Assembly (NCBI GenBank): GCA_013823325.1
Contig: PNLY01000009.1
Coordinates: 37,431 to 101,430 of the forward strand
Length of the DNA stretch: 64,000 bases
From: Methylobacterium sp.
GTDB lineage: Bacteria > Pseudomonadota > Alphaproteobacteria > Rhizobiales > Beijerinckiaceae
Direction of reading: 5' to 3'
Each line of letters begins with the position of its first letter. The stretch's first letter is position 1. The notes beneath the pieces were generated by a model. That model did not search any database. It was not told the DNA's origin and saw nothing but the letters and a program-made list of their open reading frames with translations. The position numbers and the translations under genes were made by a program. Shown in pieces: positions 19,666-42,501 of the stretch.

Positions 19666-20027
19666 TGAAACCTTCCGCGACGCTGACCAAGATTCTGGCC
19701 GTCGAGATCCTGCTCTTTGCCGGCGCCACGCTGGTCCATGCCGGCATCCTGATCGGCGGCCATGAGCACGGCTCGGCCAGGACGGCGGAAGGCGTGATCG
19801 CAGCCGTGCTGGTGCTCGGCCTGATCATCTGCCTGCTGCGCCCGGCGGCGATGCGGACGATCGCCCTCGCCGTGCAGGGTTTCGCGCTGCTCGGCACGCT
19901 GGTCGGCGTCTTTACGATCACTGGCGGCGTCGGGCCGCAGACGCTGGCGGACAAGGCCTTCCACGGCGCCCTGCTGATGGTGCTCTTCGCCGGGCTGGTA
20001 GCCGCCTGGCGCGCACCGCGCGGCTAG
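19665..20027 (+). CDS. Small four-helix integral membrane protein
   Basis: A 120-residue protein with four predicted membrane segments (about residues 8-28, 40-60, 65-88, 95-115). It starts MKPSATLTKILAVEILLF at an ATG that overlaps the monooxygenase stop (TGATG). I do not recognise the family. Coupling to the monooxygenase suggests a membrane partner or a transport or protection role for its substrate. The last four bases overlap the convergent crotonase gene. Confidence 0.75.
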   Translation: MKPSATLTKILAVEILLFAGATLVHAGILIGGHEHGSARTAEGVIAAVLVLGLIICLLRPAAMRTIALAVQGFALLGTLVGVFTITGGVGPQTLADKAFHGALLMVLFAGLVAAWRAPRG

Positions 20028-20812
20028 AATTTCGGCGACCGGCGCTCGAAGAAGGCGGCGATGCCCTCGCGGAAATCCGCCGTGCCGGCGTTCGCGACGA
20101 AGTTCTGCTTCTCCAGGTCGAGCTGCGCATCGAAGGAGCCATGAGTCGCGGCCTGGACCAGTGCCTTGCTCGCCGCTTGCGCGCCGACGCTGCCGCGGGC
20201 GAGCTTTTCCGCCATGGCTCGCGCCGTCTCCATCAGCTCATCCTTCGGCACGAGGCGGTTGACCAGGCCGAGCTGGAGCGCGGTCTGCGCATTCATCGCC
20301 TCGTTGAGCAGCACGAATTCCAGCGCCCGGCGCGGGCCGAGCAACTGCGTCAGCGTCCAGGTGGTGCCGCCATCGGGGCTGGTGCCGAGCTTGGTATAGG
20401 CCGAGAGGAAGCTCGCATCCTCTGCCGCCACCACAAGGTCGCAGGCGAGCGCCAGCCCGACGCCGCCGCCGGCGACCGGCCCCTGTACCGCCGCGATCAC
20501 CAGCTGCGGCATCGCCTTGATCAGGCGCATCAGCGTGTGGAAGCGGTCGATCAGCTTCGTCGCGGTCTGCGGCGCGCCGGGCAGGTCGCTCTGGAAGCGG
20601 GCGAGATCGCCCCCCGCCATGAAGGAGCGCCCTGCCCCGGCCAGGATGACCGCGCGGATCGTCTGGTCGGCTGCGAGCCCCGAGAACGCCGCGACCAGCG
20701 CATCCGCCATCGCCTCGTCGAGGACGTTGAGCACCTTGGGGCGGTTCATGGTCACAATAAGGATCGGCCCATGCCGCTCCGTGATCACCACCTCGCCTGC
20801 CGCATCGCTCAT
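20024..20812 (-). CDS. Enoyl-CoA hydratase/isomerase (PaaG-like crotonase)
   Basis: A 262-residue crotonase. The oxyanion segments AGAGRSFMAGGDLARF and GPVAGGGVGLALACDLVVA are intact. The acid position reads KLGTSPDGGTTWTLTQLLG, with Asp where hydratases often have Glu, as in PaaG-type isomerases. It is the last gene of the Liv-type operon, 33 bp after the PaaK-like ligase, and probably acts on the CoA ester that ligase makes. The substrate is unknown. Confidence 0.92.
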   Translation of the reverse strand: MSDAAGEVVITERHGPILIVTMNRPKVLNVLDEAMADALVAAFSGLAADQTIRAVILAGAGRSFMAGGDLARFQSDLPGAPQTATKLIDRFHTLMRLIKAMPQLVIAAVQGPVAGGGVGLALACDLVVAAEDASFLSAYTKLGTSPDGGTTWTLTQLLGPRRALEFVLLNEAMNAQTALQLGLVNRLVPKDELMETARAMAEKLARGSVGAQAASKALVQAATHGSFDAQLDLEKQNFVANAGTADFREGIAAFFERRSPKF

Positions 20813-20845
20813 CGTCCCGTCCTCATCCTGTCTGCGCCCGCCGTC

Positions 20846-22085: not shown

Positions 22086-22877
<792 letters not shown>

Positions 22878-22929
22878 CGGCCCGATCCGAAAAGGGGCGG
22901 TGCGGAACACCCGCGCCGCCCGCGCAGGG

Positions 22930-24192
22930 TCATTTCCCGGACTTCTTGAACTCGTCCGAGTTCTTGCGGATTTCCTCCCAGACCACGTCCTGGTTGGCGG
23001 AGAACCAGTCGGTGATCGGCACGAACCTGGCGCCGTCCCAGCGCGCGATCCGGCCCATGCCGCCGCCCTGGTGGTCGTCCCTGGTGATCGTGGTGGGCGG
23101 CAGCAGGCCGTCGGCGGTGAAGTTGGTGATCGAGCGCAAGCCTTCGTTGAGCCAGGGGCCGGTGACCGGGCCGTTCGGCGCCTTCTCGGCCGCCCTGCGC
23201 ACGCCCTCGACCATCAGCGTCGCCATCTGGACGCCGTAGTTGTAGTAGGCGGTGCCGACCTTGTTCTCGGGGCCGGCGCCTTTGCCCTTGCCGACGACGT
23301 CGGCGAGGATGTCCTTGATCACCTTGGGCTCGCGGCCGCCGACGCAGGGCTCGACCTTCATCACGCCCTTGGCCGCCTCGCGCCCGACCACATCCATGTC
23401 GGATTCGGAGAGCCAGACGCTGCCGGAGACGCGGTCCATCGGCAGGCCGTTGCGGATCGCCTCGGTCAGCGCCACGGTCTGGCCGACGCCGGCACCCCAG
23501 AAGATCACGAAATCGGGCCGCGCACGGCGCACCTGCGGCCAGATCGCCGACTGGTCGTTGCCCGGCGGCGTATAGGGGAAGGCGGCGAGCTCGTAGCCTT
23601 CCTTCTTGGCGAGGACGTTGAGGATCGGCAGCGGCTCCTTGCCGAAGGGCGTGTCGATGTGGACGAAGACGATCTTCTTGCCCTTGAGGCTGCCCTTCTC
23701 GGTCTTCTTGAACTGCTCGATGATCAGGCCCGCCTGGGTCCAGTAATTGATCGAGAGCGGCAGCACATAGGGGAAGGCGCTGCCGTCGGCGGCGTCGCTG
23801 CGGCCGGAATAGGCGGTGATCATGTTGATCTTGTCCTCGAGCGCGCGCGGTACCAGAGCCCGCGCCACCGGCGTCGAGAGCGGGTCGATCAGCACCGCGC
23901 CCTCGCGCTTGCCACGCTCATAGGCCTCGATCGCGCGCGGCAGGTCGTTGGCGTGGTCGGTGATATCAGCGACGATCTTGTAGCCGCCGACGCCGCCGCG
24001 CTCGTTGACCAGGGTGAAGTAGTCGCGCTGGCCCTGGTTATATTCCGAGGTGACGAAGGTGTAGATGCGGGTGAAGTCCTGCGGCAGCGTGAAGCGGACG
24101 ATCTTCTCCTGGGCAAAGACCTGCACCGGAAGGGCGAGCGGCACGGCCAGCGCGGCCGAGCCGGCGATGAACGAACGGCGATCGAGCGACAT
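22930..24192 (-). CDS. ABC transporter substrate-binding protein, Tat-type leader
   Basis: A 420-residue type I binding protein. The leader MSLDRRSFIAGSAALAVP carries a twin-arginine motif followed by a hydrophobic stretch and a QVFAQ cleavage region, so export folded through Tat is likely. Start ATG 24192 has a strong GGAGGAAACAGG site. The fold follows the LivJ/HBP family (TLPQDFTRIYTFVTSEYNQG). Members of this group inside operons with CoA ligases often bind aromatic or aliphatic carboxylates rather than amino acids; that is an inference here. Confidence 0.92.
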   Translation of the reverse strand: MSLDRRSFIAGSAALAVPLALPVQVFAQEKIVRFTLPQDFTRIYTFVTSEYNQGQRDYFTLVNERGGVGGYKIVADITDHANDLPRAIEAYERGKREGAVLIDPLSTPVARALVPRALEDKINMITAYSGRSDAADGSAFPYVLPLSINYWTQAGLIIEQFKKTEKGSLKGKKIVFVHIDTPFGKEPLPILNVLAKKEGYELAAFPYTPPGNDQSAIWPQVRRARPDFVIFWGAGVGQTVALTEAIRNGLPMDRVSGSVWLSESDMDVVGREAAKGVMKVEPCVGGREPKVIKDILADVVGKGKGAGPENKVGTAYYNYGVQMATLMVEGVRRAAEKAPNGPVTGPWLNEGLRSITNFTADGLLPPTTITRDDHQGGGMGRIARWDGARFVPITDWFSANQDVVWEEIRKNSDEFKKSGK

Positions 24193-24229: not shown

Positions 24230-25303
24230 TCACCGCTGGGCATGGCGGAACGGCCAGACGAGCAAGTAATTGCGGAAATTGGCGTAGATCTTGGCGAGGC
24301 CGAGCGGCTCGTAGAGCAGGAAGCCGATCACCAGCGCGCCATAAGCCATCAATGGCAGATGGGCGCGCAGGTCGATCGGCAAGGACCAGCCGAATGTGCC
24401 GGCGGTGAAGCCAAGCAAATTGTTGAGCAGGATCGGCGCGAACAGGATGAGCGCCGTGCCGAAGAACGGGCCGAGCACGCTGCCGAGACCGCCGACGATG
24501 ATCATCGCCAGGATCTGGATCGAGAGCTCGATATGGAACTGGTCGGGCGAGATCGCCCTGAGATAGGTCACCGCCAGCAGCGAGCCGACGACGCCGCCGA
24601 TGAAGGACGAGACCCAGAACGCCAGCAGCTTGTAGCGGAAGGTCGAGATGCCGAGGATCTGCGCGGCGTAGTCCTTCTCGCGCAAAGCCGCCAGGGCGCG
24701 GCCGAAGCTGGTGCGGCGGACGTTCAGCATGAACAGTGTGATGACGAAGCAGACGCCGAAGGCGAGGTAATAGGTCGGCAGGTCGCCTTGCAGCGGGATG
24801 CCCAAGAAGCGGACCGGTGGCACCTGCAAGGTCGCGAGCGAGCCGCCGCTGATCACCGAAGAGTGCGAGATGACGAAGTCGACGACATACTGCATGGCGA
24901 GCGTCGCCATCGCCAGATAAATGCCCTTCATGCGCAGGGCCGCGCCGCCGAACATGGTGCCGATGGTGGCGCTGAGCAGGCCGCCGGCGATCATGGCGAT
25001 CTCGAGCGGCACGCCGAGGCGCACCAGATGGACCGAGCCATAGGCGCCGATGCCCATCACCGCGCCATAGCCGAGATGGATCTGGCCGGACCAGCCCATC
25101 AGCAAGTTGAGGCCGAGCGCCGCTGAGGTCCAGATCAGCCAGGGCAGCAGGTAGCCGGAGACATAGAGCCGGTCGAACAGGAAGGGCGCCGCCAGCAGGA
25201 TGGCGATGACCGCGATGATCAGGCCGCGGTCGAAGCCGAGCGGGAACAGCTGGCGCTCGTCCTGATAGCGCGTGTGGCGGATGCCGGCGCGACGATAGAA
25301 CAC
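24230..25303 (-). CDS. livM: Branched-chain-type ABC permease, LivM
   Basis: A 357-residue inner-membrane permease with about ten hydrophobic segments. It has the LivM signature around GGLGSVLGPFFGTALILFAP and the EAA-like segment LAALREKDYAAQILGIS that contacts the ATPase. It is 4 bp after livH and 37 bp before the binding-protein gene. No unusual feature was noticed. Confidence 0.95.
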   Translation of the reverse strand: MFYRRAGIRHTRYQDERQLFPLGFDRGLIIAVIAILLAAPFLFDRLYVSGYLLPWLIWTSAALGLNLLMGWSGQIHLGYGAVMGIGAYGSVHLVRLGVPLEIAMIAGGLLSATIGTMFGGAALRMKGIYLAMATLAMQYVVDFVISHSSVISGGSLATLQVPPVRFLGIPLQGDLPTYYLAFGVCFVITLFMLNVRRTSFGRALAALREKDYAAQILGISTFRYKLLAFWVSSFIGGVVGSLLAVTYLRAISPDQFHIELSIQILAMIIVGGLGSVLGPFFGTALILFAPILLNNLLGFTAGTFGWSLPIDLRAHLPLMAYGALVIGFLLYEPLGLAKIYANFRNYLLVWPFRHAQR

Positions 25304-25307: not shown

Positions 25308-26195
25308 TCAGACCCTCTCGATATGGTGACGGCCGAACAGGCCGTGCGGCTTGAGCAGGAGCGTCACCAGGATGATCACGGCCGCGACCACGTCGCGCGA
25401 GCCGCCGCCGACCAGCGGGTCGAGCACGCCGGTGGCGAGGCTCTCGGCGACGCCAACGATGACGCCGGCGATCAACACGCCCGGAATGGAGTCGAGCCCG
25501 CCGAGGATGGCGATGGCGAGCGCCTTGATCAGCAGCAGCGAGAGCGACCAGTCGATGCCCTGGGTGCTGCCCCAGAGCACGCCGGCGGCGGTGGCGGAAA
25601 CGGCGGCGAGCCCCCAGGCGACGGCGATCGCGCGCTCGACCCTGATGCCGACCGACCAGGAGGCGGTCTGGTCGTCGGCGACGGCGCGCATCACCACGCC
25701 GTAGCGCGAGTTGAAGAAGAACAGTGAGAGCAGGATCAGCAGCAGCGAGATCGAGCCGCCGATCATCGTGGAGCGATTGAGCAGGAGATCGCCGACGAAG
25801 AGCGGCTGCTGCGGCAGGCCGATATCGAGGCGCTTGACCGCCGCACCGAAGATGCCGGGGAGAAGGCCGCGCAGCATGATCTCAACGCCGAGCGTCAGCA
25901 TGATCGTCATGATCACCGGCTGGCCGATCATCCGGCGCAGCGCGATGCGTTCCATCAGCAGGCCGAAGCCGAACATGCCAACGAGTGCAACGGGAATCGC
26001 CAGCCACATCGGCAGGCCGACCAAAGTGGCGAGCGCCCAGGTGACGTAGCCGCCGGTCATGGCGATGGCGCCCTGGGCGAGATTGGCGGTGCCGGAGGTC
26101 TTGTAGATCAGCACGATGCCGAGCGAGACCAGCGCATACATCAGGCCGACGAAGACGCCGTTGGCCGAGAGTTCCGCGAGCAGGATCCAGTCCAT
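25308..26195 (-). CDS. livH: Branched-chain-type ABC permease, LivH
   Basis: A 295-residue permease of normal length with eight or so membrane segments. LivH features include LVSLGIVLIYKTSGTANLAQGA near the start and ILGGLDSIPGVLIAGVIVGV near residue 240. Its ATG overlaps the stop of the acyl-CoA synthetase by one base, which ties transport and CoA activation into one translation unit. Confidence 0.95.
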   Translation of the reverse strand: MDWILLAELSANGVFVGLMYALVSLGIVLIYKTSGTANLAQGAIAMTGGYVTWALATLVGLPMWLAIPVALVGMFGFGLLMERIALRRMIGQPVIMTIMLTLGVEIMLRGLLPGIFGAAVKRLDIGLPQQPLFVGDLLLNRSTMIGGSISLLLILLSLFFFNSRYGVVMRAVADDQTASWSVGIRVERAIAVAWGLAAVSATAAGVLWGSTQGIDWSLSLLLIKALAIAILGGLDSIPGVLIAGVIVGVAESLATGVLDPLVGGGSRDVVAAVIILVTLLLKPHGLFGRHHIERV

Positions 26196-28144
26196 CAGGC
26201 GACGACCTCACTGATCTTGAGCGTCCGCCGGATCACGCCGCGCTCCCCGTTCTCATAGGCGATGGTGGCGTCGAACACGGTCTCGGTCGCCCCGCTGTAG
26301 AGCGCCTCGATCAGCGAGGCGTAGGTGGTCTCGATGGTGTTGCGGCGCAGCTTGCGGGTGCGGGTGATCTCGCCGTCGTCGGCGTCGAAATCCTTGTGCA
26401 GGTTCGAGAAGCGCCTGATGCGCAGGCCGTCCGGCTGCGTGCCGTTGACGTGCCTGACCACCTGGCCGATCAGCGCCTGCACCTCGGGCCGCTGCGAGAG
26501 CTCGGCATAGGAGGTGTAGGAGATGCCGCGCTCCTCGGCCCAGTGGCCGACCGCGTCGAAATCGATGCAGACGATGGCGGTGAGCTGGTCGCGCCCGGCG
26601 CCGATCACCGCGACATTACGGATATAGGGGCTGAATTTCAGCCGGTTCTCGATGAAGTTCGGGATGTAGCGCTCGCCCGAGGCGGTGCGCACGACCTCGC
26701 TGACGCGGCCGAGCACGACGAGCTGGCCGTCCTCGTCGATGCGCCCGGCATCGCCGGTGTGCAGCCAGCCATCGACCAGCGCCTTGGCGCTGCTTTCGGG
26801 ATCGTCATAGTAGCCGTCAACCACCGAGGTGGAGCGCACCAGGATCTCGCCGCTGTCGTCGATCCTGATCTGGCTACCTTCCATCGGCTTGCCGACCGTG
26901 TGCAGCTTGACCTGCCCCTCGGTCTGCGCCGCCGTCAGCGCGCAGGTCTCGGTCTGGCCGTAGAACTGCTTCAGCTTGATGCCGAGCGCCCGGAAGAACA
27001 GGAAGGTGTCCTCGCCGAGCGCTTCGCCGCCCGTGAAGGCGCGCTCGGCGCGTCCCAATCCCAGATGATCGCGCAGCGGCGCATAGACCAGCACGTTGCC
27101 GACGGCATCAAGCAGCTTTTCCGTCAGCGTCAGTGAGCCCCCGGCGAGGCGCTTGCGCTCGTAGGCGACGGCGCGCTCCATCGTCGTCTCGAACAGCCAG
27201 CGCTTGAACGGCGTCGAGTTCTTCATGCCGACCTGGACGCGGGTCAGCATCTGGTCCCAGGCGCGCGGCGCGGCGAGATAGAAGGTCGGCGAGACCTCGC
27301 GCAGGTCGCGCATCACCGTCTCCTGGCGCTCGGGGATGTTGATCGTCGCCGCCATCATCATGCCGGCGCCCAGCGTGAAGACGAAGTCGCCGACCCAGGC
27401 GGTGGGCAGATAGGCGTAGAGTTCCTCGTGCTGGCGGAAATAGCCGCTCGCCCTCGCGTTGAGCAGGCCGCCGGTGACGTTGCGATGGCGCAGCGGGATA
27501 CCCTTGGGCAGGCCCGTCGTGCCGGATGAGTGCAGCAGCACGGAGATGTCGTCGGCCTGCGGCTCGTCGACGAAGCGCCTGAGGAGATTGGGCTCGCGCG
27601 CCAGCCGCTCGCGGCCCTTGGCGACCAGTGCATCGAGCGACATCAGACCGGGCAGGTCGTAGGTATCGAGCCCACGCTCGTCATCGTAGAGGATGGTGGC
27701 GACGCGGCCGGTCGCGTCGCGCAGCTGCAGCAGCTTGTCGACCTGCTCCTGATCCTCGGCGATGCCGACGGGCGGCGCGCCATGGCGGGTCGCGACGATC
27801 AGCTCCTCGAGCGGAACGTCCGGAAAGACCGGCGACGGGAAGGCGCGCAGCATGTTGGCGGCGAGCATGGCGTAATAGAGCCGCGGGCGGTTGTCGCCGA
27901 TCACGGTCATCGCGGCGCCGGCGACCAGGCCGGCCTGCTCGAGCCCCGCCGCCATCGCGGCGATCTCCGCGAAAACCTCGCGCCAGTTCTGCTCCTGCCA
28001 GATGCCGTAGCGCCGCTCACGGAAGGCGACGCGATCGCCGAACTCGGCGGCATTGCGGGCGAGCGCCGCGATCAGCGTCGCCGGCTCGCCATTGGCCGCG
28101 ACCGGCCAATGGGCGCCCTCCCCGATCTTGCCGAGCGCCGTCAT
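26195..28144 (-). CDS. Long-chain-type acyl-CoA synthetase (AMP-binding)
   Basis: A 649-residue adenylate-forming ligase. The P-loop is SVLLHSSGTTGLPKG, the A5 motif is FYGQTETCAL, and the hinge is GWLHTGDAGRIDEDGQLVVLGR, all complete. It resembles the large synthetases that sit between livG and livH in many proteobacterial Liv-type operons. It overlaps livG by 4 bp (ATGA). The predicted role is to trap the incoming acid as its CoA thioester in the cytoplasm. The chain type cannot be read from sequence, but context points to branched or aromatic acids. Confidence 0.94.
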   Translation of the reverse strand: MTALGKIGEGAHWPVAANGEPATLIAALARNAAEFGDRVAFRERRYGIWQEQNWREVFAEIAAMAAGLEQAGLVAGAAMTVIGDNRPRLYYAMLAANMLRAFPSPVFPDVPLEELIVATRHGAPPVGIAEDQEQVDKLLQLRDATGRVATILYDDERGLDTYDLPGLMSLDALVAKGRERLAREPNLLRRFVDEPQADDISVLLHSSGTTGLPKGIPLRHRNVTGGLLNARASGYFRQHEELYAYLPTAWVGDFVFTLGAGMMMAATINIPERQETVMRDLREVSPTFYLAAPRAWDQMLTRVQVGMKNSTPFKRWLFETTMERAVAYERKRLAGGSLTLTEKLLDAVGNVLVYAPLRDHLGLGRAERAFTGGEALGEDTFLFFRALGIKLKQFYGQTETCALTAAQTEGQVKLHTVGKPMEGSQIRIDDSGEILVRSTSVVDGYYDDPESSAKALVDGWLHTGDAGRIDEDGQLVVLGRVSEVVRTASGERYIPNFIENRLKFSPYIRNVAVIGAGRDQLTAIVCIDFDAVGHWAEERGISYTSYAELSQRPEVQALIGQVVRHVNGTQPDGLRIRRFSNLHKDFDADDGEITRTRKLRRNTIETTYASLIEALYSGATETVFDATIAYENGERGVIRRTLKISEVVA

Positions 28145-28980
28145 GCCGCGCTCCCGGTCTGATGGCGCTTGGCGGCGCGCTCGCCCAAATAGGCGCTGAC
28201 CACAGCCGGATGCGAGATCGCCGCCTGCGGCTCGCCCTCCGAGATCACCTCGCCATAGCTCAGCACGACGACCCGGTCGCAGATCGAGGTCACCACGTCC
28301 ATGTGGTGCTCGATGATCAGGGTGGTGACGCCGCGGGCCTCGCTCGCATCGAGGATGAAGCGGGCGATGTATTCCTTCTCCTCCTGGTTCATGCCGGCCA
28401 TGGGCTCGTCCAGGATCAGGAGGCGCGGCTCGGCGACGAGGGCGCGCGCCAGCTCGACGCGCTTCTGCAGGCCGAGCGGGATGACCTCGACCGGCTCGTC
28501 GCGGATGTCCTGGAGCTGCATGAACTCGATCATCTCTTCGACGACGCGCCGGTGCGCCAGTTCCTCGCGCTCGGCCCACCACCAGTAGAACAGCGCCCCG
28601 AGCGCGCTCGGCTTCATGTGGGTGTGACGGCCGATCAGGATGTTGTCGAGGACGCTCATGCCCTTGAACAAAGCGAGGTTCTGGAAGGTGCGGGCGACGC
28701 CACGGGCCGCGACGCGATGCGGCTTCAGCGCGGTGATGTCCTCGCCGAACAGGCTGACCTTGCCGGCATTGGGCGGGTAGAAGCCGGTGATCACGTTGAC
28801 CATGGTGGTCTTGCCCGAGCCGTTCGGGCCGACGAGGCCGAGGATCTCGCCCTGGCGAACGTCGAGCGAGACGCCCTTCAGCGCCCGCAAGCCGCCGAAG
28901 CTGCGCTCGATCCCGGCGCAGGAGAGCGCGACGGGCGCGCCTGCGACGCTCGTGGCGGGGCGGTATTGAACCTCATTCAT
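28141..28980 (-). CDS. livG: Branched-chain-type ABC transporter ATPase, LivG
   Basis: A 279-residue ATPase and the first gene of the eight-gene operon. Walker A is GPNGSGKTT, Walker B is [12 protein letters not shown], and the LivG-specific [19 protein letters not shown] is present. The signature is altered: [16 protein letters not shown] replaces the usual LSGGxQR(R)LEIARAL-like wording, as in several LivG of this type. Start ATG 28980. The mRNA probably starts near 29145, leaving a leader of about 165 nt. Confidence 0.93.
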
Positions 28981-30480: not shown

Positions 30481-30573
30481 TAGCGCTGCGCCGGCCCGGC
30501 CTTGCGCAAAACCCTCGACCGGCTTTACCAGCCCCGCCGGCGCGCCGCCGCTTGGCCTCAGCAAGGATCGTCG

Positions 30574-32322: not shown

Positions 32323-33526
32323 GGCGCTCCATCCCCTTCAGCAATTCGCCGGCGATGATCATCTTGCGCACCTCGGTGGTGCCGGCGCCGATCTCGAGCA
32401 GCTTGGTGCTGCGGAAGAGCCGGTTGATCTCGGATTCCCAGATATAGCCGGCGCCGCCATGGACCTGCACGGCCTTGTCGAGCACATCGTGGCAGGCCTG
32501 CGCCGCATACATCACCGAGGCTGCAGTCAGGCGGTGGATGTCGCCGCGTCCGCCGCCGCCGACCTCCAGCGGAGCCGCCTCGGCCAAAGTGCGGTAGCTG
32601 AAGCTGCGCATGGTCTCGACCAGCACATACATCTCGGCCAGCATCGACTGGACCATCTGGAAGGCGCCGATCGGCTTGCCGAACTGCTTGCGCGTCTTGG
32701 CGTAGTCGATCGAGAGCTCGAGCGCCCGCTCGGCAACGCCGAGGCAGAGCGGCGAGATCATCGCGCGTTCCAGATCGAGCCCGCTCATCACGATGGCGAC
32801 GCCCTGGTTCTCGGCACCGACGAGATTGGCGGCCGGGACGCGGCAATCCTCGAACAGCAATTCCGCCGTCTGGCTGCCGCGATAGCCCATCTTGACCAGC
32901 TTCTGCGCCACCTTGAAGCCGGGGAAATCCTTCTCGACGATGAAGGCGGAGATGCCGTGCGGGCCCCGTTCCTTGTCGGTCTTGGCGTAGACCAAGAGCA
33001 CATCGGCGACCGGGCCGTTGGTGATGTAGATCTTGCTGCCGTTGAGGATGTAGTGGTCGCCCTCGCGGCGCGCGGTGGTGCGCATCGAGCCGAGCGCGTC
33101 CGAGCCCGCCCCCGGCTCGGTCAGGCCGAGCGCGCCGATCGTCTTCCCCGAGCAGAGATCGGGCAGATAGCGGCGGCGCTGTTCCTCGTTGCCGTTGCGA
33201 TAGATGTTGTTGGCGCAGAGGTTGTCGTGCGCGACGACGGAGAGCGCCATGGCGTGGTTCCAGCGGCTGAAGCCCTGCAGGACCAGCCCGGCCTGAAGCA
33301 GGTCGAGCCCCGCTCCGCCATATTGCTCGGGGATGGTCGCGCCGAGGAAGCCGCTGGCGCCGATCTGCCGGAAGGCCTCGTCCGGCCACCACTCCTCGTC
33401 GTCCATGCGCTGCGAGAGCGGGTAGAGCTCGGCACGGGCATAGCGGTCGGCGCCGTCGAGGATCGCGTTCTGCTCCTCGTCGAGGCCGAAGGCGTTGGCG
33501 CGGTTGCTACCGTTCACGGCGTTCAC
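32315..33526 (-). CDS. Acyl-CoA dehydrogenase, isovaleryl/citronellyl-CoA type
   Basis: A 403-residue dehydrogenase. The catalytic Glu is in the helix-G position typical of isovaleryl-CoA dehydrogenase (MSGLDLERAM, Glu253), and the C-terminal LEIGAGTTEVRKMI has no second Glu base. FAD-binding GLTEPGAGSDALGSM and YITNGPVADVLLVYAKT are normal. GTG 33526 was chosen because GGGAGGAG (33540-33533) stands six bases upstream; the GTG at 33553 lies on the other side of that site. It matches AtuD-type enzymes that desaturate methyl-branched acyl-CoAs. It is co-transcribed with the SDR and divergent from the crotonase operon. Confidence 0.93.
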   Translation of the reverse strand: MNAVNGSNRANAFGLDEEQNAILDGADRYARAELYPLSQRMDDEEWWPDEAFRQIGASGFLGATIPEQYGGAGLDLLQAGLVLQGFSRWNHAMALSVVAHDNLCANNIYRNGNEEQRRRYLPDLCSGKTIGALGLTEPGAGSDALGSMRTTARREGDHYILNGSKIYITNGPVADVLLVYAKTDKERGPHGISAFIVEKDFPGFKVAQKLVKMGYRGSQTAELLFEDCRVPAANLVGAENQGVAIVMSGLDLERAMISPLCLGVAERALELSIDYAKTRKQFGKPIGAFQMVQSMLAEMYVLVETMRSFSYRTLAEAAPLEVGGGGRGDIHRLTAASVMYAAQACHDVLDKAVQVHGGAGYIWESEINRLFRSTKLLEIGAGTTEVRKMIIAGELLKGMERHG

Positions 33527-33532
33527 GTCGAT

Positions 33533-33540
33533 CTCCTCCC
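33533..33540 (-). promoter_or_regulatory. Strong ribosome site fixing a GTG start
   Basis: On the minus strand this reads GGGAGGAG with six bases to GTG 33526. It selects 33526 over the upstream GTG 33553 for the acyl-CoA dehydrogenase. Confidence 0.75.
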
Positions 33541-33704
33541 TCGGCCTCGTCACCTAGCGGCGCGGGCGCCGGGCCATTCGGCCCTCCAATCTTATTGAGC
33601 CCATTTCATCAGCGACAACTCTCCCTGTCAACGCGATGCAGATGCGGCAAAATCGAATAATCCGTTTGCGCACCTGCTCGCACTGTCCAAGCGCAAAACT
33701 GCTA

Positions 33705-33733
33705 TTGACACCTCAAATGAATTGAAATCATTT
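33705..33733 (+). promoter_or_regulatory. Crotonase-AtuA operon promoter with TetR-type operator (site B)
   Basis: A perfect -35 TTGACA (33705-33710), a 17-bp spacer and TCATTT at the -10 position. The palindrome ATGAATTGAAATCAT (33717-33731) occupies the spacer and -10, beginning 6 bp after the -35; at site A it begins 7 bp after. The same region may also serve the divergent acyl-CoA dehydrogenase/SDR pair. Confidence 0.75.
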
Positions 33734-33776: not shown

Positions 33777-34559
<783 letters not shown>

Positions 34560-34564
34560 ACGCC

Positions 34565-36396
34565 ATGGTGGCGACAATGCGCGAGAGCATCCGCATCGGC
34601 TGCGGCGCGGGCTTCTGGGGCGACAGCCCGGAGGGGCCGCGCCAGCTCGTCCGCCAGGGCGGCATCGATTATCTCGTGCTCGACTATCTCGCCGAGATCA
34701 CCATGTCGATCCTCGCCCGGATGAAGGCGAAGAACCCCGCGCTCGGCTATGCCACCGACTTCGTCTCGCTGGTGATGAAGCCGCTCGCCCGCGAGATCGC
34801 AGAGAAGCGCATCCGCGTCGTCACCAATGCCGGCGGCGTCAACCCGGAAGCCTGCCGCGACGCCCTGCTCGCCGCCTTCAAGGGGGTCGGCGTCGAGCTC
34901 AAGGTCGCGATCGTCACGGGCGACGACCTTTCGGGCGAGGCCGAGCGGCTGCGCGCCGCCGGTACCCGCGAGATGTTCTCGGGCGCGCCCTTCCCTGAGA
35001 AGATCGCCAGCATCAACGCCTATCTCGGTGCCTTCCCGATCGCGGCGGCGCTCGCAGCCGGCGCCGATGTGGTGGTGACCGGGCGCTGCGTCGACTCGGC
35101 CGTGGTGCTCGGCCCGCTGATCCATGAATTCGGCTGGACGCCCGAGGATTATGACCGGCTCTCGGCCGGAAGCCTCGCCGGCCACATCCTCGAATGCGGC
35201 GCGCAGGCGACCGGCGGCATCGTCACCGACTGGCGCGAGGTCGCGAGCGATTGGGCGGATATGGGCTTCCCCTTCGCCGATTGCCGGGCCGATGGCAGCT
35301 TCGAGATCGGCAAGCCGGAGGGCACCGGCGGGCGCGTCAGCCCGGCGACCATCGCCGAGCAGGTGGTCTACGAGGTCGGCGACCCCGCCGCCTATTTGCT
35401 GCCGGATGTCACTTGCGACTGGTCGCAGGTGAAACTCGAAGCCTCGGGTCCAAACCGCGTCCGGGTCTCCGGTGCGCGCGGGCGTGCGCCAACCGCCAGC
35501 TACAAGGTCAGCGCCACCTATGCCGACGGCTATCGCTGCACGGCGACGATGATGATCGTCGGCGACGAGGCGGCCGAGCGGGCCGAAGCGGTCGCCAAGG
35601 CGATCCTCGCCCGCTGCGGCCGGTTGATCCGCGAGGCCGGTTTCCCGGACTTCGCCGAGACCTCGATCGAGACGCTCGGCGCCGAGGCGAGCTATGGCAC
35701 CCAAAGCCGGGCGCGAGCGACGCGCGAGGTCGTACTCAAGATCGCCGTGCGCCATTCGTCCAAGGAGGCGCTGCAGATCTTCGCCCGCGAGATCTACCCG
35801 GCCGCAACCGCGATGGCACAGAGCCTGACCGGTTTCGCCGGCGGCCGGCCCGAGCCGCAGCCGGTGATCCGGCTGTTCTCCTTCCTGATCGACAAGGCCG
35901 AGCTGAACCCGACAGTCAGCGTCGACGAGACCAGTCTGCCAGTGCCAGCGCACATTCCAGCGGCGGCCGCGGACGCCCCCTCGCCCGCCCGCGCAGTTGC
36001 GGATGTTGCGGAGGCCACCAGTGAGACGGTCACCGTCCCGCTTGTCGCCCTCGCCTTCGGCCGCAGCGGCGACAAAGGCGACATCGCCAATATCGGCGTG
36101 ATCGCGCGCGATCCCACCTTCCTGCCCTGGTTGCGCCGGGCGCTGACGCCGGAGGCGGTCGGCCGGCACTTCGCCCACCATGTCGCCGGCAAGGTCGAGC
36201 GCTTCGACTGGCCGGGCCTTGGCGGCTTCAATCTCGTGATGCACCGCGCGCTCGGCGGTGGCGGCATCGCCTCGCTGCGCCATGACCCGCAGGGCAAAGC
36301 GATGGCGCAGGTGCTGATGAGCCTGCCGGTGCCGGTCCCCGCCACTTGGCTCGCGCCGGGCGGCTCCCTCCACGGCTTCAAGACAACGGACGACGC

Positions 36397-36400
<4 letters not shown>
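34565..36400 (+). CDS. atuA: AtuA-family protein (acyclic terpene utilization, DUF1446)
   Basis: A 611-residue AtuA family member. The N-terminal DUF1446 domain starts ESIRIGCGAGFWGDSPEG and continues through TNAGGVNPEACRDALL and GRCVDSAVVLGPLIHEFGW. A C-terminal alpha/beta domain with AFGRSGDKGDIANIGVIARD is fused to it; some species encode this part separately. AtuA is needed for citronellol/geraniol growth in Pseudomonas, but its reaction is not established. The gene starts 5 bp after the crotonase stop (an ATG at 34577 is also possible) and overlaps the next gene by 4 bp. Confidence 0.93.
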
Positions 36401-37896
<1,496 letters not shown>

Positions 37897-37898: not shown

Positions 37899-38399
37899 AT
37901 GGTCCTCAAGCTCGATCTCGACGGCACCGTCCACCGCGTCACCATCCTGGCGCGCCGGCCGCATCTGGTGCTCTCCGTCGATGGGCGCCGTCACGTCATC
38001 CAGAACCTCGACGAAGCCGGCGACGGCAGCCGCCGGCTCACGCTCGACGGCGAGCCGGTCGCCTTCGCCCGCGCCGATAGCGTCGACGGCGCCATCGTCC
38101 GGCTGGACGGGCGCAGCTTCGCGCTGCGCCGCGTCGATGCCGCCGCCGAAGCCTCCGCGGCCGGGGGCGGTGCGAACGTCGTGCGCGCGCCGATGCCCGG
38201 CACGGTCATCGTGGTCCACAAGCGCGTCGGCGACAGCGTCCAGCGCGGCGAGACCATCGTCACGATCGAAAGCATGAAGCTGCAGATGAAACTCGATGCG
38301 CCGCGCGACGGCGAGATCGCCGAGATCGCGGCGCGCGAGGGCGAAGGCTTCGACAAGGACGCCGTCCTCGCCCGTCTCGCGGCTCCGGCGGAAGGCTGA
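37899..38399 (+). CDS. Biotin carrier (BT-like plus biotinyl domain), separate subunit
   Basis: A 166-residue protein. Residues 1-80 are beta-rich and resemble the BT linker domain of carboxylase alpha subunits; residues 93-163 are a biotinyl domain with IESMKLQM, so biotin should sit on Lys127. It is placed 2 bp after the biotin carboxylase and 4 bp before the carboxyltransferase. In the Atu and Liu systems this domain is fused to the carboxylase, so this looks like a gene fission with preserved order. Confidence 0.92.
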   Translation: MVLKLDLDGTVHRVTILARRPHLVLSVDGRRHVIQNLDEAGDGSRRLTLDGEPVAFARADSVDGAIVRLDGRSFALRRVDAAAEASAAGGGANVVRAPMPGTVIVVHKRVGDSVQRGETIVTIESMKLQMKLDAPRDGEIAEIAAREGEGFDKDAVLARLAAPAEG

Positions 38400-38403: not shown

Positions 38404-40011
38404 ATGTCCAGACTGCAATCGTCGATCAACACCGCCTCCGCCGATTTCCGCCGCAACGAGGCGCATAACCGCCGGCTCGTCGCCGAATTCCGGGCGAAGC
38501 AGGAAGCGGCCCGCCATGCCCGTCCGCAGCGTGATCTGGAGCGATTGGAGCGGCAGCAGAAGATGCCGCCGCGCAAGCGCATCGAATTGCTGCTCGACCC
38601 CGGCACGCCCTTCCTCGAGCTGTCCTCGCTCGCCGGGAACATGGCCTATGGCGGGGAATCGCCTTCCGCGAGCTCGATCGTCGGCATCGGCATCGTGTCG
38701 GGCCGCGAGGTCGTGATCCGTGCCGACGATCCGACGGTGAAGGGCGGCGCCTGGTATCCGCTCACCGCCAAGAAGATCGTCCGCGCTCTCGACATCGCCA
38801 TGGAGAACCGGTTGCCGGTCGTCCATCTCTGCGATTCCGCCGGCGGCTTCCTGCAATTGCAGTCGGAGGTCTTCCCGGACCGCTACATGGCCGGGCGCAT
38901 CTTCCGCAACCAGTCGCTGCTGTCGAAGATGGGCGTGAAGCAGCTTGCCCTCGTCTTCGGCCACTGCACCGCCGGCGGCGCCTATATCCCGGGGCTCTCG
39001 GATTACAGCGTGATCGTGCGCGGCACCGGCGCAGTCTTTTTGGGCGGCCCGCCCCTGGTGAAGGCGGCGACCGGCGAAGACGTCACGGTCGAGGAACTCG
39101 GCGGCGCCGAGATGCACACCAGCGTTTCCGGCACCTGCGACTATCCCGCCGACAGCGAGGAGCACGCCATCGAGATCGGCCGCGAGATCGTCGCGCAATG
39201 GGACCGGCTGCCGCGCTGGGAGTTGCAGCGCGAGGCTCCCGAGGAGCCGTTCTACGATCCCGCCGAGATCTACGGGATCGTGCCCGACGACATCAAGAAG
39301 GCCTTCGACATGCGCGAGATCATCGCCCGCATCGTCGACGGCAGCCGCTTCCACGAATACCAGCCGGCCTATGGCACGACCTTGGTCTGCGGCTTCGCCA
39401 ATATCTGGGGCTACAAGGTCGGCATCCTCGCCAATAACGGCGTTCTCTTCAACGATTCTTCGCTGAAGGGCGCTCATTTCATCGAGCTTTGCAACCAGAA
39501 CAACACGCCATTGGTCTTCCTGCAGAACATCACCGGCTACATGGTCGGGCGCGAATACGAGCGGCGCGGCATCACCAAGGACGGCGCCAAGATGATCATG
39601 GCGCAGAGCTGCTCGCGGGTGCCGAAATTCACGGTGATGTGCAACGGTTCTTTCGGCGCCGGCAATTACGGCATGTGCGGGCGCGCTTTCGACGGGCGCT
39701 TCCTGTTCTCCTGGCCGAACCACCAGATCGGCGTGATGGGCGGCGACCAGGCGGCGAACACGCTGGCCGAGGTCAAGGCCAACCAGATGAAGCGCAATGG
39801 CGGAGCAGTCGACCAGGGCGAGATCGAGCGGCTCTGGGAGGAGACGCGAAAAGCCTATCAGGAGCAACTTTCGGCCTATTACTCGACCTCGGAACTCTGG
39901 GACGACGGCATCATCGACCCGCTCGACACCCGCAATGCGCTCGGCGTGGCGATCTCGGCCTCGTTGAACGCCCCGCTCGGCTCGCCCGGCTACGGCGTCT
40001 TCCGGTTCTGA
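38404..40011 (+). CDS. Acyl-CoA carboxylase, carboxyltransferase beta subunit
   Basis: A 535-residue carboxyltransferase of the MCC/GCC beta type. The acyl-CoA site FGHCTAGGAYIPGLSDYSVI and the carboxybiotin-side FLQNITGYMVGREYE with NGSFGAGNYGMCGRAFDGRF are present. It transfers CO2 from biotin to the gamma carbon of a 3-methyl-2-enoyl-CoA. Whether it prefers geranyl-CoA or 3-methylcrotonyl-CoA cannot be settled by eye; AtuA, the AtuD-like dehydrogenase and the TetR favour the longer substrate. It is AtuC/LiuB-like. Confidence 0.93.
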   Translation: MSRLQSSINTASADFRRNEAHNRRLVAEFRAKQEAARHARPQRDLERLERQQKMPPRKRIELLLDPGTPFLELSSLAGNMAYGGESPSASSIVGIGIVSGREVVIRADDPTVKGGAWYPLTAKKIVRALDIAMENRLPVVHLCDSAGGFLQLQSEVFPDRYMAGRIFRNQSLLSKMGVKQLALVFGHCTAGGAYIPGLSDYSVIVRGTGAVFLGGPPLVKAATGEDVTVEELGGAEMHTSVSGTCDYPADSEEHAIEIGREIVAQWDRLPRWELQREAPEEPFYDPAEIYGIVPDDIKKAFDMREIIARIVDGSRFHEYQPAYGTTLVCGFANIWGYKVGILANNGVLFNDSSLKGAHFIELCNQNNTPLVFLQNITGYMVGREYERRGITKDGAKMIMAQSCSRVPKFTVMCNGSFGAGNYGMCGRAFDGRFLFSWPNHQIGVMGGDQAANTLAEVKANQMKRNGGAVDQGEIERLWEETRKAYQEQLSAYYSTSELWDDGIIDPLDTRNALGVAISASLNAPLGSPGYGVFRF

Positions 40012-40014: not shown

Positions 40015-40620
40015 ATGCCGGGAGCGCTGCGCCTTTATCTCGATTTCGCCTCGCCCTATTCCTATTTCGCGCTCCATTCGCTGGCGCGACTGGCCGAGGA
40101 ACATGGCCGAGCGCTAGAACTCAGGCCGATCCTGCTCTGGGCGGTTTTCAAGCAGCAGGGTGTGACCAATCCGCTGGAGAAGCCGGCGCGCCGGCGCTAT
40201 TTTCTCGAGGACGTGACCCGCTCGGCCGAGTTCTTCGGCTTGCCCTTCCGCATTCCAGAGCCACTGCAGATCTCGGCCCATCTCGCCGGCCGGCTCCATC
40301 ACGCCTGGACTGCGACACGGCCACAGGACGGTTTGCGACTGGCGAGCGAGATCTTCGAGGCCTTCTTCGCCCGAGCCGAGGACATCACCGACCCGGCCGT
40401 GCTCGCCGCCCTGCCGTGCCTCGCCGACGAGACGCCGGAGGCGATCCGCGCCATGATCGATGGGGCGGAGGGCCGCCGGCGCCTCAGCGAGGCAGTGGAT
40501 GAGGCCTGCGCAGCCAATATCACCGGGGTGCCCTTCGTCACGCTGGACGGCGAGAGCTTCTTCGGCGCCGACCGCCTGCCGCAGATCGCCTGGCGGCTGC
40601 AGCGTCCGCGCGAGACGTGA
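40015..40620 (+). CDS. DsbA-family / 2-hydroxychromene-2-carboxylate isomerase-like protein
   Basis: A 201-residue kappa-GST/HCCA-isomerase type thioredoxin-fold protein. The active-site start reads LYLDFASPYSYFALHSLARL, with Ser in place of a CxxC cysteine, and the cis-Pro motif is NITGVPFVTLDG. These use glutathione for cis-trans isomerisation in aromatic pathways. Its place inside a branched acyl-CoA operon, 3 bp after the carboxyltransferase, suggests isomerising an enoyl or glutaconyl intermediate, but that is a guess. Confidence 0.88.
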   Translation: MPGALRLYLDFASPYSYFALHSLARLAEEHGRALELRPILLWAVFKQQGVTNPLEKPARRRYFLEDVTRSAEFFGLPFRIPEPLQISAHLAGRLHHAWTATRPQDGLRLASEIFEAFFARAEDITDPAVLAALPCLADETPEAIRAMIDGAEGRRRLSEAVDEACAANITGVPFVTLDGESFFGADRLPQIAWRLQRPRET

Positions 40621-40633
40621 TCAGGAGAGTGGG

Positions 40634-41323
40634 ATGAGCGACGACAGGCTCGCCGGAGCGCTGAAAGCGACGCCCTTCATCGATGCCAACGCGCCGGCGA
40701 TCCGCGCCTTCGTCGACCGCCATGCCGGCACTGGCCCCGACCGCTACCGCGCCGTCCGGCTCTACTACGCCGTCCGCGACGCCGTGCCCTACGACCTGCG
40801 CTATTTCGGCATCGAGCGCGACATCTTCGTCGCCTCGCGCTGCCTGGAGGCGAAGGGATCGTTCTGCGTGCCCAAGGCGGTGACGCTCGCCGCAGTTTGC
40901 CGCGCCGCCGGTATCCCGGCGCGCGTCGGCTTCGCCGATGTGCGCAACCACCTGGCCTCGCCGCGCATCCTCGACCTGATGGGCACCGACGTCTTTCGCT
41001 GGCACGCCTATACGCTACTCCATCTCGAAGGCCGCTGGGTCAAGGCGACGCCGGCCTTCGACCTCGCCTTCTGCGCTCGCTTCGATGTCGAGCCGCTCGA
41101 TTTCGATGGGAGCACGGATTCGATCTTCCAGCCCTTCGACGCAGCCGGCCGCCAGCACATGGACTATGTGCTCGACCGCGGTGACCATGACGAGATGCCG
41201 TTCGAGGCCTTTCGCGAGGCGATGCAGCAAGCCTATCCTCGCCTGATCACGGCGATGGCGGCAGAGCGTGCCGCCCTCGCCGGCAAGCCACAGCCCAAAC
41301 CCGTCACGGGAGAACAGCCATGA
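40634..41323 (+). CDS. Transglutaminase-like cysteine protease-fold protein
   Basis: A 229-residue protein with an intact transglutaminase-core triad: Cys78 in KGSFCVPKAVTLAAVCRAAG, His124 in FRWHAYTLLHLEGRW, Asp143 in KATPAFD. No signal peptide is seen, so it should be cytoplasmic. The ribosome site AGGAGAG precedes ATG 40634, and the stop overlaps the thiolase start by 4 bp. A transglutaminase-like enzyme between an isomerase and a thiolase is unexpected; hydrolysis or transfer on a thioester or amide of the pathway is conceivable. Its function is unknown. Confidence 0.88.
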   Translation: MSDDRLAGALKATPFIDANAPAIRAFVDRHAGTGPDRYRAVRLYYAVRDAVPYDLRYFGIERDIFVASRCLEAKGSFCVPKAVTLAAVCRAAGIPARVGFADVRNHLASPRILDLMGTDVFRWHAYTLLHLEGRWVKATPAFDLAFCARFDVEPLDFDGSTDSIFQPFDAAGRQHMDYVLDRGDHDEMPFEAFREAMQQAYPRLITAMAAERAALAGKPQPKPVTGEQP

Positions 41324-42501
41324 CCGAATCCGTCGTCATCGTCGGCGCGGCCCGCAGCGCGATCGGCAGCTTCGGCGGCTCGCTCGCCGGCCATGCTCCC
41401 GCGGCGCTTGGCGCCCTCGTTGCCGGCGAGGCCTTGCGGCGGGCCAAGCTCGACCCCGGCGAGGTCGGCCATGTCGTCTTCGGCAACGTCATCCCGACCG
41501 GGCCGCAGGACGCCTATCTCGCCCGCGTCGCGGCGGTCGAGGCCGGCATACCGGTCGAGACCCCGGCGCTGACGCTGAACCGGCTCTGCGGCTCGGGCGT
41601 GCAGGCCATCGTCTCCGCCGCTCAGTCGATCATGCTCGGCGACGCCGAGACCGCGCTCGCCGGCGGCGCCGAGGTGATGAGCCGTGCCCCGCACCATCTC
41701 ACCTCCGCCCGCTTCGGCCAGCGCCTCGGCGACACCACCATGCTCGACGGCCTCACCGGCGTGCTGACCGACCCGTTCGGCAACGGCATCATGGGCATCA
41801 CCGCCGAGAACGTCGCCGAGAAATACGGCATCTCGCGCGACGCCCAGGACGCGTTCGCGGCCGAGAGCCAGCGCCGGGCCGGTGTCGCCATCGCGGAAGG
41901 TCGCTTCGCCGACCAGATCCTGCCGGTCGAGGTGACCAAGGGCCGCGCGCAGATCGCCTTCGCCACCGACGAATACCCCAAGCCGGAGACGACGACGGAG
42001 AGCCTCGCCAAGCTGCCCACGGTTTTCAAGAAGGGCGGCAGCGTCACCGCCGGCAACGCCTCGGGCATCAATGACGGAGCAGCGGCGATCGCCCTCGCCT
42101 CGGAACGGCGCGCCGAGGCCGCCGGCATGACCCCGCTCGCCCGCATCGTCGGCTACGCCCATGCCGGCGTCGAGCCCGGCCTGATGGGCATCGGTCCGAT
42201 CCCGGCCGTGCGGGCGCTGCTGAAGCGGACCGGCCTGTCGATCGGCGATTTCGACGTGGTCGAGTCGAACGAGGCCTTCGCCGCCCAGGCGCTCGCCGTC
42301 GCGCGCGAGCTCGGCCTCGACCCGGCCCGCACCAATCCCGATGGCGGCGCGATCGCGCTCGGCCATCCCGTCGGCGCGACCGGCGCGATCCTGGTCGTCA
42401 AGGCGCTGTCGCATCTACGCCGGAATGGCGGCCGCTACGGCCTGATCACCATGTGCATCGGCGGCGGCCAGGGCATAGCGCTGGCGGTCGAGCGGCTCTG
42501 A
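41320..42501 (+). CDS. Thiolase (acetyl-CoA acyltransferase)
   Basis: A 393-residue thiolase with all catalytic residues: Cys90 in LNRLCGSGVQ, His349 in GGAIALGHPVGATG, Cys379 in MCIGGGQG. It cleaves a 3-ketoacyl-CoA with CoA. It is the last gene of the crotonase-AtuA operon (4-bp overlap with the previous gene) and probably does the final chain shortening. No HMG-CoA lyase gene is in the window, so acetoacetate- or HMG-type products must be handled elsewhere or the route differs. Confidence 0.95.
   Translation: MTESVVIVGAARSAIGSFGGSLAGHAPAALGALVAGEALRRAKLDPGEVGHVVFGNVIPTGPQDAYLARVAAVEAGIPVETPALTLNRLCGSGVQAIVSAAQSIMLGDAETALAGGAEVMSRAPHHLTSARFGQRLGDTTMLDGLTGVLTDPFGNGIMGITAENVAEKYGISRDAQDAFAAESQRRAGVAIAEGRFADQILPVEVTKGRAQIAFATDEYPKPETTTESLAKLPTVFKKGGSVTAGNASGINDGAAAIALASERRAEAAGMTPLARIVGYAHAGVEPGLMGIGPIPAVRALLKRTGLSIGDFDVVESNEAFAAQALAVARELGLDPARTNPDGGAIALGHPVGATGAILVVKALSHLRRNGGRYGLITMCIGGGQGIALAVERL

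What the first reader, a model, noticed from the sequence alone, without database searches (positions are those of the whole stretch)
20024..42501. Atu-like branched-acid catabolic regulon with its own Liv-type importer and two CoA ligases
Seen: within 22 kb there is a complete Liv-type ABC importer whose operon also encodes two acid-CoA ligases and a crotonase, plus a TetR, an isovaleryl/citronellyl-type dehydrogenase, an SDR, an AtuE-like hydratase, AtuA, a biotin-dependent carboxylase and a thiolase. Established: AtuA, AtuB/G (SDR), AtuC/AtuF (carboxylase), AtuD (dehydrogenase), AtuE and AtuR (TetR) are the Pseudomonas acyclic terpene set. Inference: this strain imports a free isoprenoid or methyl-branched acid instead of oxidising the alcohol, then activates and degrades it. 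The combination with a dedicated ABC importer and the extra DsbA/HCCA-like and transglutaminase-like genes looks like an undescribed variant.
Basis: partly seen in the sequence, partly recalled or inferred. Interest (0 to 1): 0.85.

Follow-up and report, generated by a model that had tools for sequence, protein, structure and literature searches.

The report
Importer-coupled branched-acid degradation gene cluster
A soil bacterium related to Bosea carries a conserved, probably co-regulated set of genes predicted to import a bulky methyl-branched (terpene-like) acid, activate it and remove its blocking methyl branch, using a carboxylase lineage distinct from the two known ones of this type.

Summary
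Window 20024-42501 holds a complete Liv-type importer with two CoA ligases and a crotonase, then TetR, SDR, isovaleryl-CoA-dehydrogenase-type enzyme, hydratase, full-length AtuA, carboxylase and thiolase. "One regulon" is supported: ATGAATNNNATTCAT (0-1 mismatch) occurs in the three control regions, 3 of only 4 such sites in the 6.03-Mb genome, and is conserved in Bosea relatives. The combination is not unique to this strain: 24 of 25 evaluable loci with the same carboxylase have Liv/FadD genes beside it, in several gene orders. "Atu-like" is right for predicted chemistry, not for membership: the carboxylase beta subunit is neither geranyl-CoA carboxylase (GCC) nor ordinary methylcrotonyl-CoA carboxylase (MCC) but its own clade (100/100). 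It has MCC loop length, but the Phe that keeps bulky substrates out of MCC is Ala/Gly in 26 of 26, and its alpha subunit is split in 26 of 26. AtuA is a relative of a PDB entry named citramalate lyase A, consistent with the proposed acetate-lyase role. Best reading: uptake, CoA activation and breakdown of a 3-methyl-branched acid larger than isovalerate. The actual substrate is untested.

The parts
20024..20812 (-). crotonase (ECH_liv) at the end of the liv operon
   Evidence: ECH_1 3.3e-60; 67-69% orthologue after the PaaK-like gene in L155/L156; copies of about 60-65% beside ACAD in L069-L073
20846..22078 (-). PaaK-like CoA ligase
   Evidence: PF00501 1.8e-18, PaaK models about 103 bits, far below cut-off; 77% in L155/L156, 90-92% in three Bosea
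22086..22910 (-). LivF-type ATPase
   Evidence: ABC_tran 3.3e-27
22930..24192 (-). Liv-type binding protein (ORF to 24243); N-terminus MSLDRRSFIAG looks like a twin-arginine signal (recalled motif)
   Evidence: Peripla_BP_6 5.4e-37; best PDB 4ru0, 202 bits; N-terminus printed
24230..25303 (-). LivM-type permease
   Evidence: BPD_transp_2 1.6e-34
25308..26195 (-). LivH-type permease
   Evidence: BPD_transp_2 3.7e-27
26195..28144 (-). FadD11-like acyl-CoA ligase with AMP-binding_C_3 (ORF to 28582)
   Evidence: PF00501 2.5e-54; FadD11 model 262 bits, cut-off 950
28141..28980 (-). LivG-type ATPase, first gene of the liv operon (ORF to 29055; in-frame ATG read from the sequence at 28980)
   Evidence: ABC_tran 1.8e-31 and BCA_ABC_TP_C
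29153..29167 (.). predicted TetR operator, exact ATGAATNNNATTCAT, upstream of LivG
   Evidence: exact in 7 of 7 Bosea-type contigs
29303..30265 (-). NMO-family FMN protein, role unassigned
   Evidence: NMO 9.3e-18; 60-76% copies in six of the 15 liv-linked clusters
30466..30480 (.). predicted operator, 1 mismatch, NMO/TetR control region
   Evidence: in 6 of 7 Bosea-type contigs
30502..31305 (+). TetR-family regulator, FadR-like (ATG at 30574 is a likely start)
   Evidence: TetR_N 7.2e-13; FadR model 89 bits, cut-off 200
31441..32322 (-). SDR oxidoreductase
   Evidence: adh_short_C2 1.8e-51
32315..33553 (-). acyl-CoA dehydrogenase, isovaleryl-CoA-dehydrogenase type (start perhaps 33499)
   Evidence: top five PDB hits are named IVD (329-365 bits); 'GLDLER' Glu kept
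33717..33731 (.). predicted operator, 1 mismatch, ACAD/ECH divergent promoter
   Evidence: in 7 of 7 Bosea-type contigs and in L007, L008, L017
33777..34559 (+). crotonase-fold hydratase (ECH_atu); first canonical Glu replaced by Gly, second kept
   Evidence: ECH_1 8.1e-53; alignments
34556..36400 (+). AtuA with C-terminal ferredoxin-like domain: predicted acetate-releasing lyase
   Evidence: PF07287 481 bits, PF23544 92 bits; profile hits PDB 9erq at 5.7e-11
36397..37896 (+). biotin carboxylase subunit without BCCP (ORF from 36346)
   Evidence: Biotin_carb_N/CPSase_L_D2/Biotin_carb_C
37899..38399 (+). stand-alone BCCP, ESMKL biotinylation motif, weak BT-domain trace at N-terminus (E 0.007)
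38404..40011 (+). carboxyltransferase (beta) subunit, small-gate clade (ORF from 38296)
40015..40620 (+). HCCA-isomerase/GST-kappa-like protein (PF01323), proposed cis/trans enoyl-CoA isomerase
   Evidence: PDB 3fz5 71 bits, GST kappa 51 bits; motif
40460..41323 (+). transglutaminase-like protein (start probably 40634), role unknown
   Evidence: Transglut_core 3.3e-12
41320..42501 (+). BktB-type 3-ketothiolase
   Evidence: PRK09051 subfamily 611 bits, cut-off 565; BktB equivalog 573, cut-off 725, not met

Best explanation
A TetR-controlled, importer-coupled catabolic system for a bulky 3-methyl-branched (isoprenoid-type) carboxylic acid. Uptake: the binding protein and LivHMGF bring in the free acid (inferred). 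Activation: the FadD11-like ligase, in Bosea also the PaaK-like one, makes the acyl-CoA (inferred from family). Oxidation: the IVD-type dehydrogenase makes a 3-methyl-2-enoyl-CoA (inferred; catalytic Glu conserved). Carboxylation: a split biotin carboxylase (BC + BCCP + CT) carboxylates the methyl branch; the residue that blocks bulky substrates in MCC is Ala here (shown in sequence; effect inferred from published mutants). The HCCA-like protein may supply the cis isomer that GCC-type enzymes are thought to need (speculative). Cleavage: the crotonase hydrates the glutaconyl-CoA product and AtuA splits off acetate, leaving a 3-oxoacyl-CoA (inferred). Thiolase: the BktB-type enzyme takes off acetyl-CoA, and the rest enters beta-oxidation and the host's separate leucine-type genes (Phe-gate, MCC-like CT on contig C115; HMG-CoA lyases on C28 and C29).
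For: Gene content and order. A shared operator in all three control regions, 3 of 4 sites with at most 1 mismatch in the whole genome, at orthologous places in Bosea and near gene starts in other families. Liv/FadD genes beside 12 of 20 close AtuA loci versus 1 of 20 distant ones in the order, in two different liv clades and several gene orders; both modules stand in tandem in L151/L152. CT gate Ala/Gly in 26 of 26 cluster CTs, Phe in the host's own other MCC-like CT; the Gly/Phe exchange changes substrate preference (PMC4673880, passages). Split BC/BCCP in 26 of 26. AtuA profile matches PDB 9erq, named citramalate lyase subunit A; [quoted passage not shown] That paper also reports linalool-growth-deficient Thauera mutants with insertions in branched-chain amino acid transporters. 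IVD-type base kept. MCC-like CT and HMG-CoA lyases elsewhere in the genome.
Against: No substrate, binding or growth data. The SBP's nearest PDB relative is annotated as branched-chain amino acid binding, so an amino acid or other solute is not excluded. The Mesorhizobium locus L008 has core and TetR but only weak ABC-ATPase hits (25-30%) in about 20 kb upstream. Outside Bosea the operator was not found with at most 1 mismatch in 8 liv-linked clusters (L062, L063, L065, L066, L068, L073, L102, L105 and their scanned extensions). The operator pattern was derived from the window itself. The hydratase falls far below the AtuE model. A small gate is not exclusive to this clade: L013_642, an unplaced long-branch CT, has Ala and the MCC-length loop too. 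Only 16 of the 26 cluster CTs were put in the tree. The Thauera paper discusses its transporter mutants under toxicity, not uptake.
Confidence: 0.7

Rival explanations
1. Plain member of the Pseudomonas acyclic terpene (citronellol/geraniol) pathway to which a nearby transporter happens to be adjacent.
For: Full-length AtuA at 53-55% to AtuA in Pseudomonas-type clusters L129-L133; same functional gene set.
Against: CT outside the GCC clade, no 3-residue deletion, split alpha subunit; AtuE model not met; no AtuR operator in the control regions; the transporter is linked by a common operator and recurs beside this core.
Confidence: 0.12
2. A second leucine/isovalerate (Liu) pathway: Liv imports leucine or isovalerate and the carboxylase is an MCC isoenzyme.
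For: CT scores higher with MCC than GCC structures (594 against 460 bits); IVD-type dehydrogenase; Liv-type importer.
Against: Gate Phe replaced by Ala/Gly in 26 of 26; no HMG-CoA lyase in the cluster and an AtuA instead; host has a separate Phe-gate CT and HMG-CoA lyases; two CoA ligases would be superfluous for leucine.
Confidence: 0.1
3. Degradation of a cyclic or aryl-bearing acid with a 3-methyl-2-enoyl side chain (for example an apocarotenoid- or abscisate-type acid), the core serving to shorten that side chain.
For: A PaaK-like ligase and a crotonase closest to oxepin-CoA-hydrolase/PaaG models, below their cut-offs, accompany the liv operon; a FAD_binding_3 / ring-hydroxylase-type gene lies next to the operon at 18088-19665; open CT pocket.
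Against: The ring-hydroxylase-type gene has no match in any of the 17 cluster groups nor in the three Bosea liv stretches; the PaaK-like gene was found in 2 of the 15 liv-linked clusters, several only partly covered.
Confidence: 0.08

Closest known systems
Pseudomonas acyclic terpene utilization (Atu) cluster, atuRABCDEFGH
   Same: AtuA, SDR, acyl-CoA dehydrogenase, crotonase, biotin-dependent gamma-carboxylase, acyl-CoA ligase, TetR; same predicted order of reactions
   Different: No Liv module in the 20-kb stretches of five GCC-type clusters (L129-L133; one lone 26% ATPase hit); GCC-clade CT with deletion and Gly; fused alpha subunit; different operator; different hydratase subfamily
Leucine/isovalerate utilization (Liu) with MCC
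   Same: IVD-type dehydrogenase, MCC-length CT loop, crotonase
   Different: Phe gate replaced, alpha split, AtuA instead of HMG-CoA lyase, importer and two ligases
Liv-type ABC importers linked to CoA ligases (aromatic-acid uptake; recalled, not searched)
   Same: Liv importer genes mixed with CoA ligases in one operon
   Different: Here joined by a common operator to an AtuA/carboxylase core
Citramalate lyase subunit A (PDB 9erq/9evf, names as deposited)
   Same: AtuA-family domain; GR..D.A and EC stretches aligned
   Different: 456 aa, too short for the fused ferredoxin-like domain; E = 5.7e-11 only by profile

Membership tests
Pseudomonas-type Atu system | Full-length AtuA (PF07287 plus PF23544) | tested here: met
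   481 and 92 bits; 53-55% to AtuA in L129-L133; but in the tree the window AtuA and the L129-L133 AtuAs fall in different groups
Pseudomonas-type Atu system | GCC-type beta subunit: Gly at 162 and 3-residue deletion relative to MCC (PMC4673880) | tested here: not met
   Gate is Ala (small, as in GCC) but no deletion, and outside the GCC clade
Pseudomonas-type Atu system | Fused BC-BT-BCCP alpha subunit (AtuF) | tested here: not met
   BC and BCCP separate here and in 26 of 26 cluster loci; fused in 22 other AtuA-linked BC ORFs, plus L096, full length but missed by the motif test
Pseudomonas-type Atu system | AtuE-type hydratase | tested here: not met
   PRK05674 gamma-carboxygeranoyl-CoA hydratase 125 bits, cut-off 426
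Pseudomonas-type Atu system | AtuR operator AGCAAGCGCTTGG in the control region (sequence from PMC9973270) | tested here: not met
   6 matches at 2 mismatches in the window, 2.8 expected, none in a control region of the cluster
Pseudomonas-type Atu system | Growth on citronellol/geranate depends on the genes | not testable with these tools
   needs mutants
MCC / Liu | Phe at position 191 of the beta subunit | tested here: not met
   Ala; A/G in 26 of 26 cluster CTs; Phe in host CT L028
MCC / Liu | HMG-CoA lyase in the cluster | tested here: not met
   none among the 20024-42501 proteins scanned; two elsewhere in the genome
Isovaleryl-CoA dehydrogenase type | Catalytic Glu in helix G motif GLDLER (role recalled) | tested here: met
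   alignment to 1ivh, 4o5m, 4kto
Liv-type ABC importer | SBP + two BPD_transp_2 permeases + two ATPases | tested here: met
Liv-type ABC importer | Branched-chain amino acid as ligand | not testable with these tools
   needs binding assay
HCCA isomerase / GST kappa | SPY-type N-terminal motif without CXXC (role of the Ser recalled) | tested here: met
   SPY in 15 of 15 rows, SPY[SA]Y in 14
HCCA isomerase / GST kappa | Glutathione-dependent isomerase activity | not testable with these tools
   needs enzyme assay

The most novel reading that the evidence does not exclude
The cluster defines a third lineage of biotin-dependent gamma-carboxylases, separate from MCC and GCC, with a bulky-substrate pocket and a split BC/BCCP alpha subunit. 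It is dedicated to hydrophobic 3-methyl-branched acids that are taken up as free acids by a Liv-type ABC importer under one TetR operator, with an HCCA-type isomerase that supplies the cis-enoyl-CoA the carboxylase requires.
Probability: 0.35. Interest if true: 0.8.

Novelty: new variant of a known kind. Interest (0 to 1): 0.6.

Why it matters
How bacteria take up terpenoid and other branched acids is, to my knowledge (recalled), poorly defined. A Liv-type importer tied by one operator to an AtuA/carboxylase core would name a transporter that a binding assay can test directly. The carboxylase clade gives a natural test of how MCC/GCC-type enzymes change substrate size, and in the loci compared here the split alpha subunit is confined to this clade. 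It would also caution against annotating Liv operons of this type as amino acid transporters.

Tried and rejected
Tried without result: AlphaFold model of AtuA. The machine was full; the job accepted was still unfinished, so no fold comparison was made and the AtuA/9erq link rests on the sequence profile. Eight paper searches listed no paper that I could recognise as describing a Liv importer joined to an AtuA cluster; only the open library was searched, listings were judged by title and start of abstract, four papers were opened at passages, and one search was swamped by Portuguese words.

Rejected: DsbA oxidoreductase role for 40015-40620 (no CXXC). Split BC/BCCP as a sequencing error (same split in 26 of 26 loci). 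GCC membership from AtuA linkage alone (tree and loop length disagree). Liv beside AtuA as coincidence (recurrence, shared operator).

Weak points of the counts: loci are related, so the Fisher value (12/20 against 1/20, p = 4e-4) is not a test of independent events. 20 of 43 distant AtuA rows were fetched, and 40 of 92 further rows (three genomes are in both). Stretches are about 20 kb (some extended); L077, L083, L112 and L134 are short. 'Liv/FadD genes beside' means at least LivG plus the FadD-like ligase: in L070 and L072 only these two were within the stretch. L078 (weak LivH/LivM hits) was counted as not linked; L094 (LivF, LivG and LivH hits but no FadD-like ligase) was counted as the one linked distant locus. 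L007 was not evaluable (contig end). L010 and L062 are one genome, counted once. The operator density in liv-type stretches (39 in 728 kb against 5 in 1,202 kb of other loci) counts orthologous and duplicate sites many times.
Full report
What is there. The window lies in a 6.03-Mb, 234-contig genome whose nearest AtuA loci are Bosea. The leftward liv operon reads LivG, FadD11-like ligase, LivH, LivM, binding protein, LivF, PaaK-like ligase, crotonase. Next come an NMO-family gene (minus), TetR (plus), and SDR and acyl-CoA dehydrogenase (minus). The rightward operon reads hydratase, AtuA, BC, BCCP, CT, HCCA-like, transglutaminase-like, thiolase.

One regulon. The palindrome ATGAATNNNATTCAT lies upstream of LivG (29153, exact), in the NMO/TetR region (30466, 1 mismatch) and in the divergent dehydrogenase/hydratase promoter (33717, 1 mismatch). 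In the window 5 sites with up to 2 mismatches were found where 0.61 are expected; the other two, at 24917 and 28966, have 2 mismatches. In the whole genome only 4 places have at most 1 mismatch, 3 of them these; the reversed control pattern gave none. The pattern was taken from the window, so the independent support is conservation. Of seven Bosea-type contigs (L002-L006, L009, L011), 7, 6 and 7 keep the three sites. Sites also stand in or near gene-start regions of L007, L008, L017, L064, L067, L069-L072 and L103 (judged on stop-to-stop ORFs). In 8 other liv-linked clusters none was found at this stringency. AtuR's operator is absent from the control regions.

Recurrence. In 297 genomes of the order, 20 AtuA homologues above 50% identity besides the window's own were found and all fetched; 12 have Liv/FadD genes in the stretch, against 1 of 20 fetched distant homologues (of 43). 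In 40 further loci from class and phylum searches, 3 more do. These 15 loci plus named contigs show several arrangements and two liv clades: Bosea-like (LivG 81-87%) and another (LivG 46-51%). L151/L152 have both in tandem. The same-genus genome G985 has no AtuA match at the threshold, so the cluster is accessory even within the genus. L008 (Mesorhizobium) keeps core and TetR without a liv module in about 20 kb upstream. Counting by carboxylase, 24 of 25 evaluable small-gate loci have Liv/FadD genes beside them.

The carboxylase. Against the PDB the CT scores 594-596 bits with the best MCC and AccD1 chains and 460 with GCC. A 42-row tree puts the 16 cluster CTs included in one clade (100/100), apart from the GCC-side clade (16 rows, 100/100) and from MCC; the join of the first two is 89/79. 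PMC4673880 (passages) gives Phe191 in MCC against Gly162 in GCC, plus a 3-residue insertion in MCC, as the substrate-size switch. The residue was placed here by matching chain numbering in the printed alignments. Cluster CTs have Ala (18) or Gly (8) in 26 of 26, with the MCC-length loop; the host's other MCC-like CT keeps Phe (L028). One unplaced long-branch CT, L013_642, also has Ala with the long loop, so a small gate alone does not define the clade. The alpha subunit is split into BC and BCCP in 26 of 26, and fused in 22 other AtuA-linked BC ORFs, plus L096, full length but missed by the motif test. BC of L068 is cut by the stretch end; its BCCP is separate in L144.

The other steps. The dehydrogenase aligns best with isovaleryl-CoA dehydrogenases and keeps the GLDLER Glu. 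The hydratase has Gly in place of the first crotonase Glu and keeps the second, and is not AtuE by model. The AtuA profile matches 9erq/9evf, deposited as citramalate lyase subunit A, at 5.7e-11; single-sequence searches gave only about 0.04. PMC4847356 and PMC9973270 (passages) give AtuA as a tentative or speculated acetate lyase; PMC4682846 (passages) only notes a DUF1446 gene of unknown function beside methylaspartate ammonia-lyase. The thiolase passes the BktB subfamily cut-off (611 over 565) though not the BktB equivalog one. It would fit the 3-oxoacyl-CoA left by AtuA (inference). The HCCA-like protein is present in part of the clusters (7 of 17 groups, plus Bosea); [quoted passage not shown]

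Function. The inference is import of a free acid, CoA activation, dehydrogenation, gamma-carboxylation, hydration, acetate release and thiolysis. [quoted passage not shown] The ligand here is unknown.

Verdict. It is a new variant of a known kind.

Noticed in passing
5968-10603 (-): AcrB-type RND efflux pump and HlyD-type adaptor genes.
   Followed up: no
16294-17367 (-): A lone Liv-type binding protein gene (Peripla_BP_6) near the liv operon, also near it in two of three Bosea relatives read.
   Followed up: partly
18088-19665 (+): FAD_binding_3 / aromatic-ring-hydroxylase-type gene next to the liv operon; no match in the 17 cluster groups or the three Bosea stretches.
   Followed up: partly
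31300-31450: Long inverted repeat between TetR and SDR genes, REP-like or a two-way terminator (sequence seen).
   Followed up: no
47244-59487: Sarcosine-oxidase-like and GCV_T genes, an amino-acid-type ABC importer and a formyl-transferase/ACT protein: looks like an N-methyl amine demethylation cluster.
   Followed up: no
59537-62757 (-): Sigma-54 response regulator with a dCache histidine kinase.
   Followed up: no
L151 and L152: Two different Liv/FadD modules in tandem beside one AtuA core.
   Followed up: partly
L118, L119, L126: AtuA with a 55-56% SDR neighbour but no carboxylase found in about 20 kb, though AtuA groups with the liv-type clade.
   Followed up: no
L162 (contig C14): Fourth genomic operator-like site, between an SDR gene and a LysR-type gene (family names by eye); link to this TetR unclear.
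   Followed up: partly
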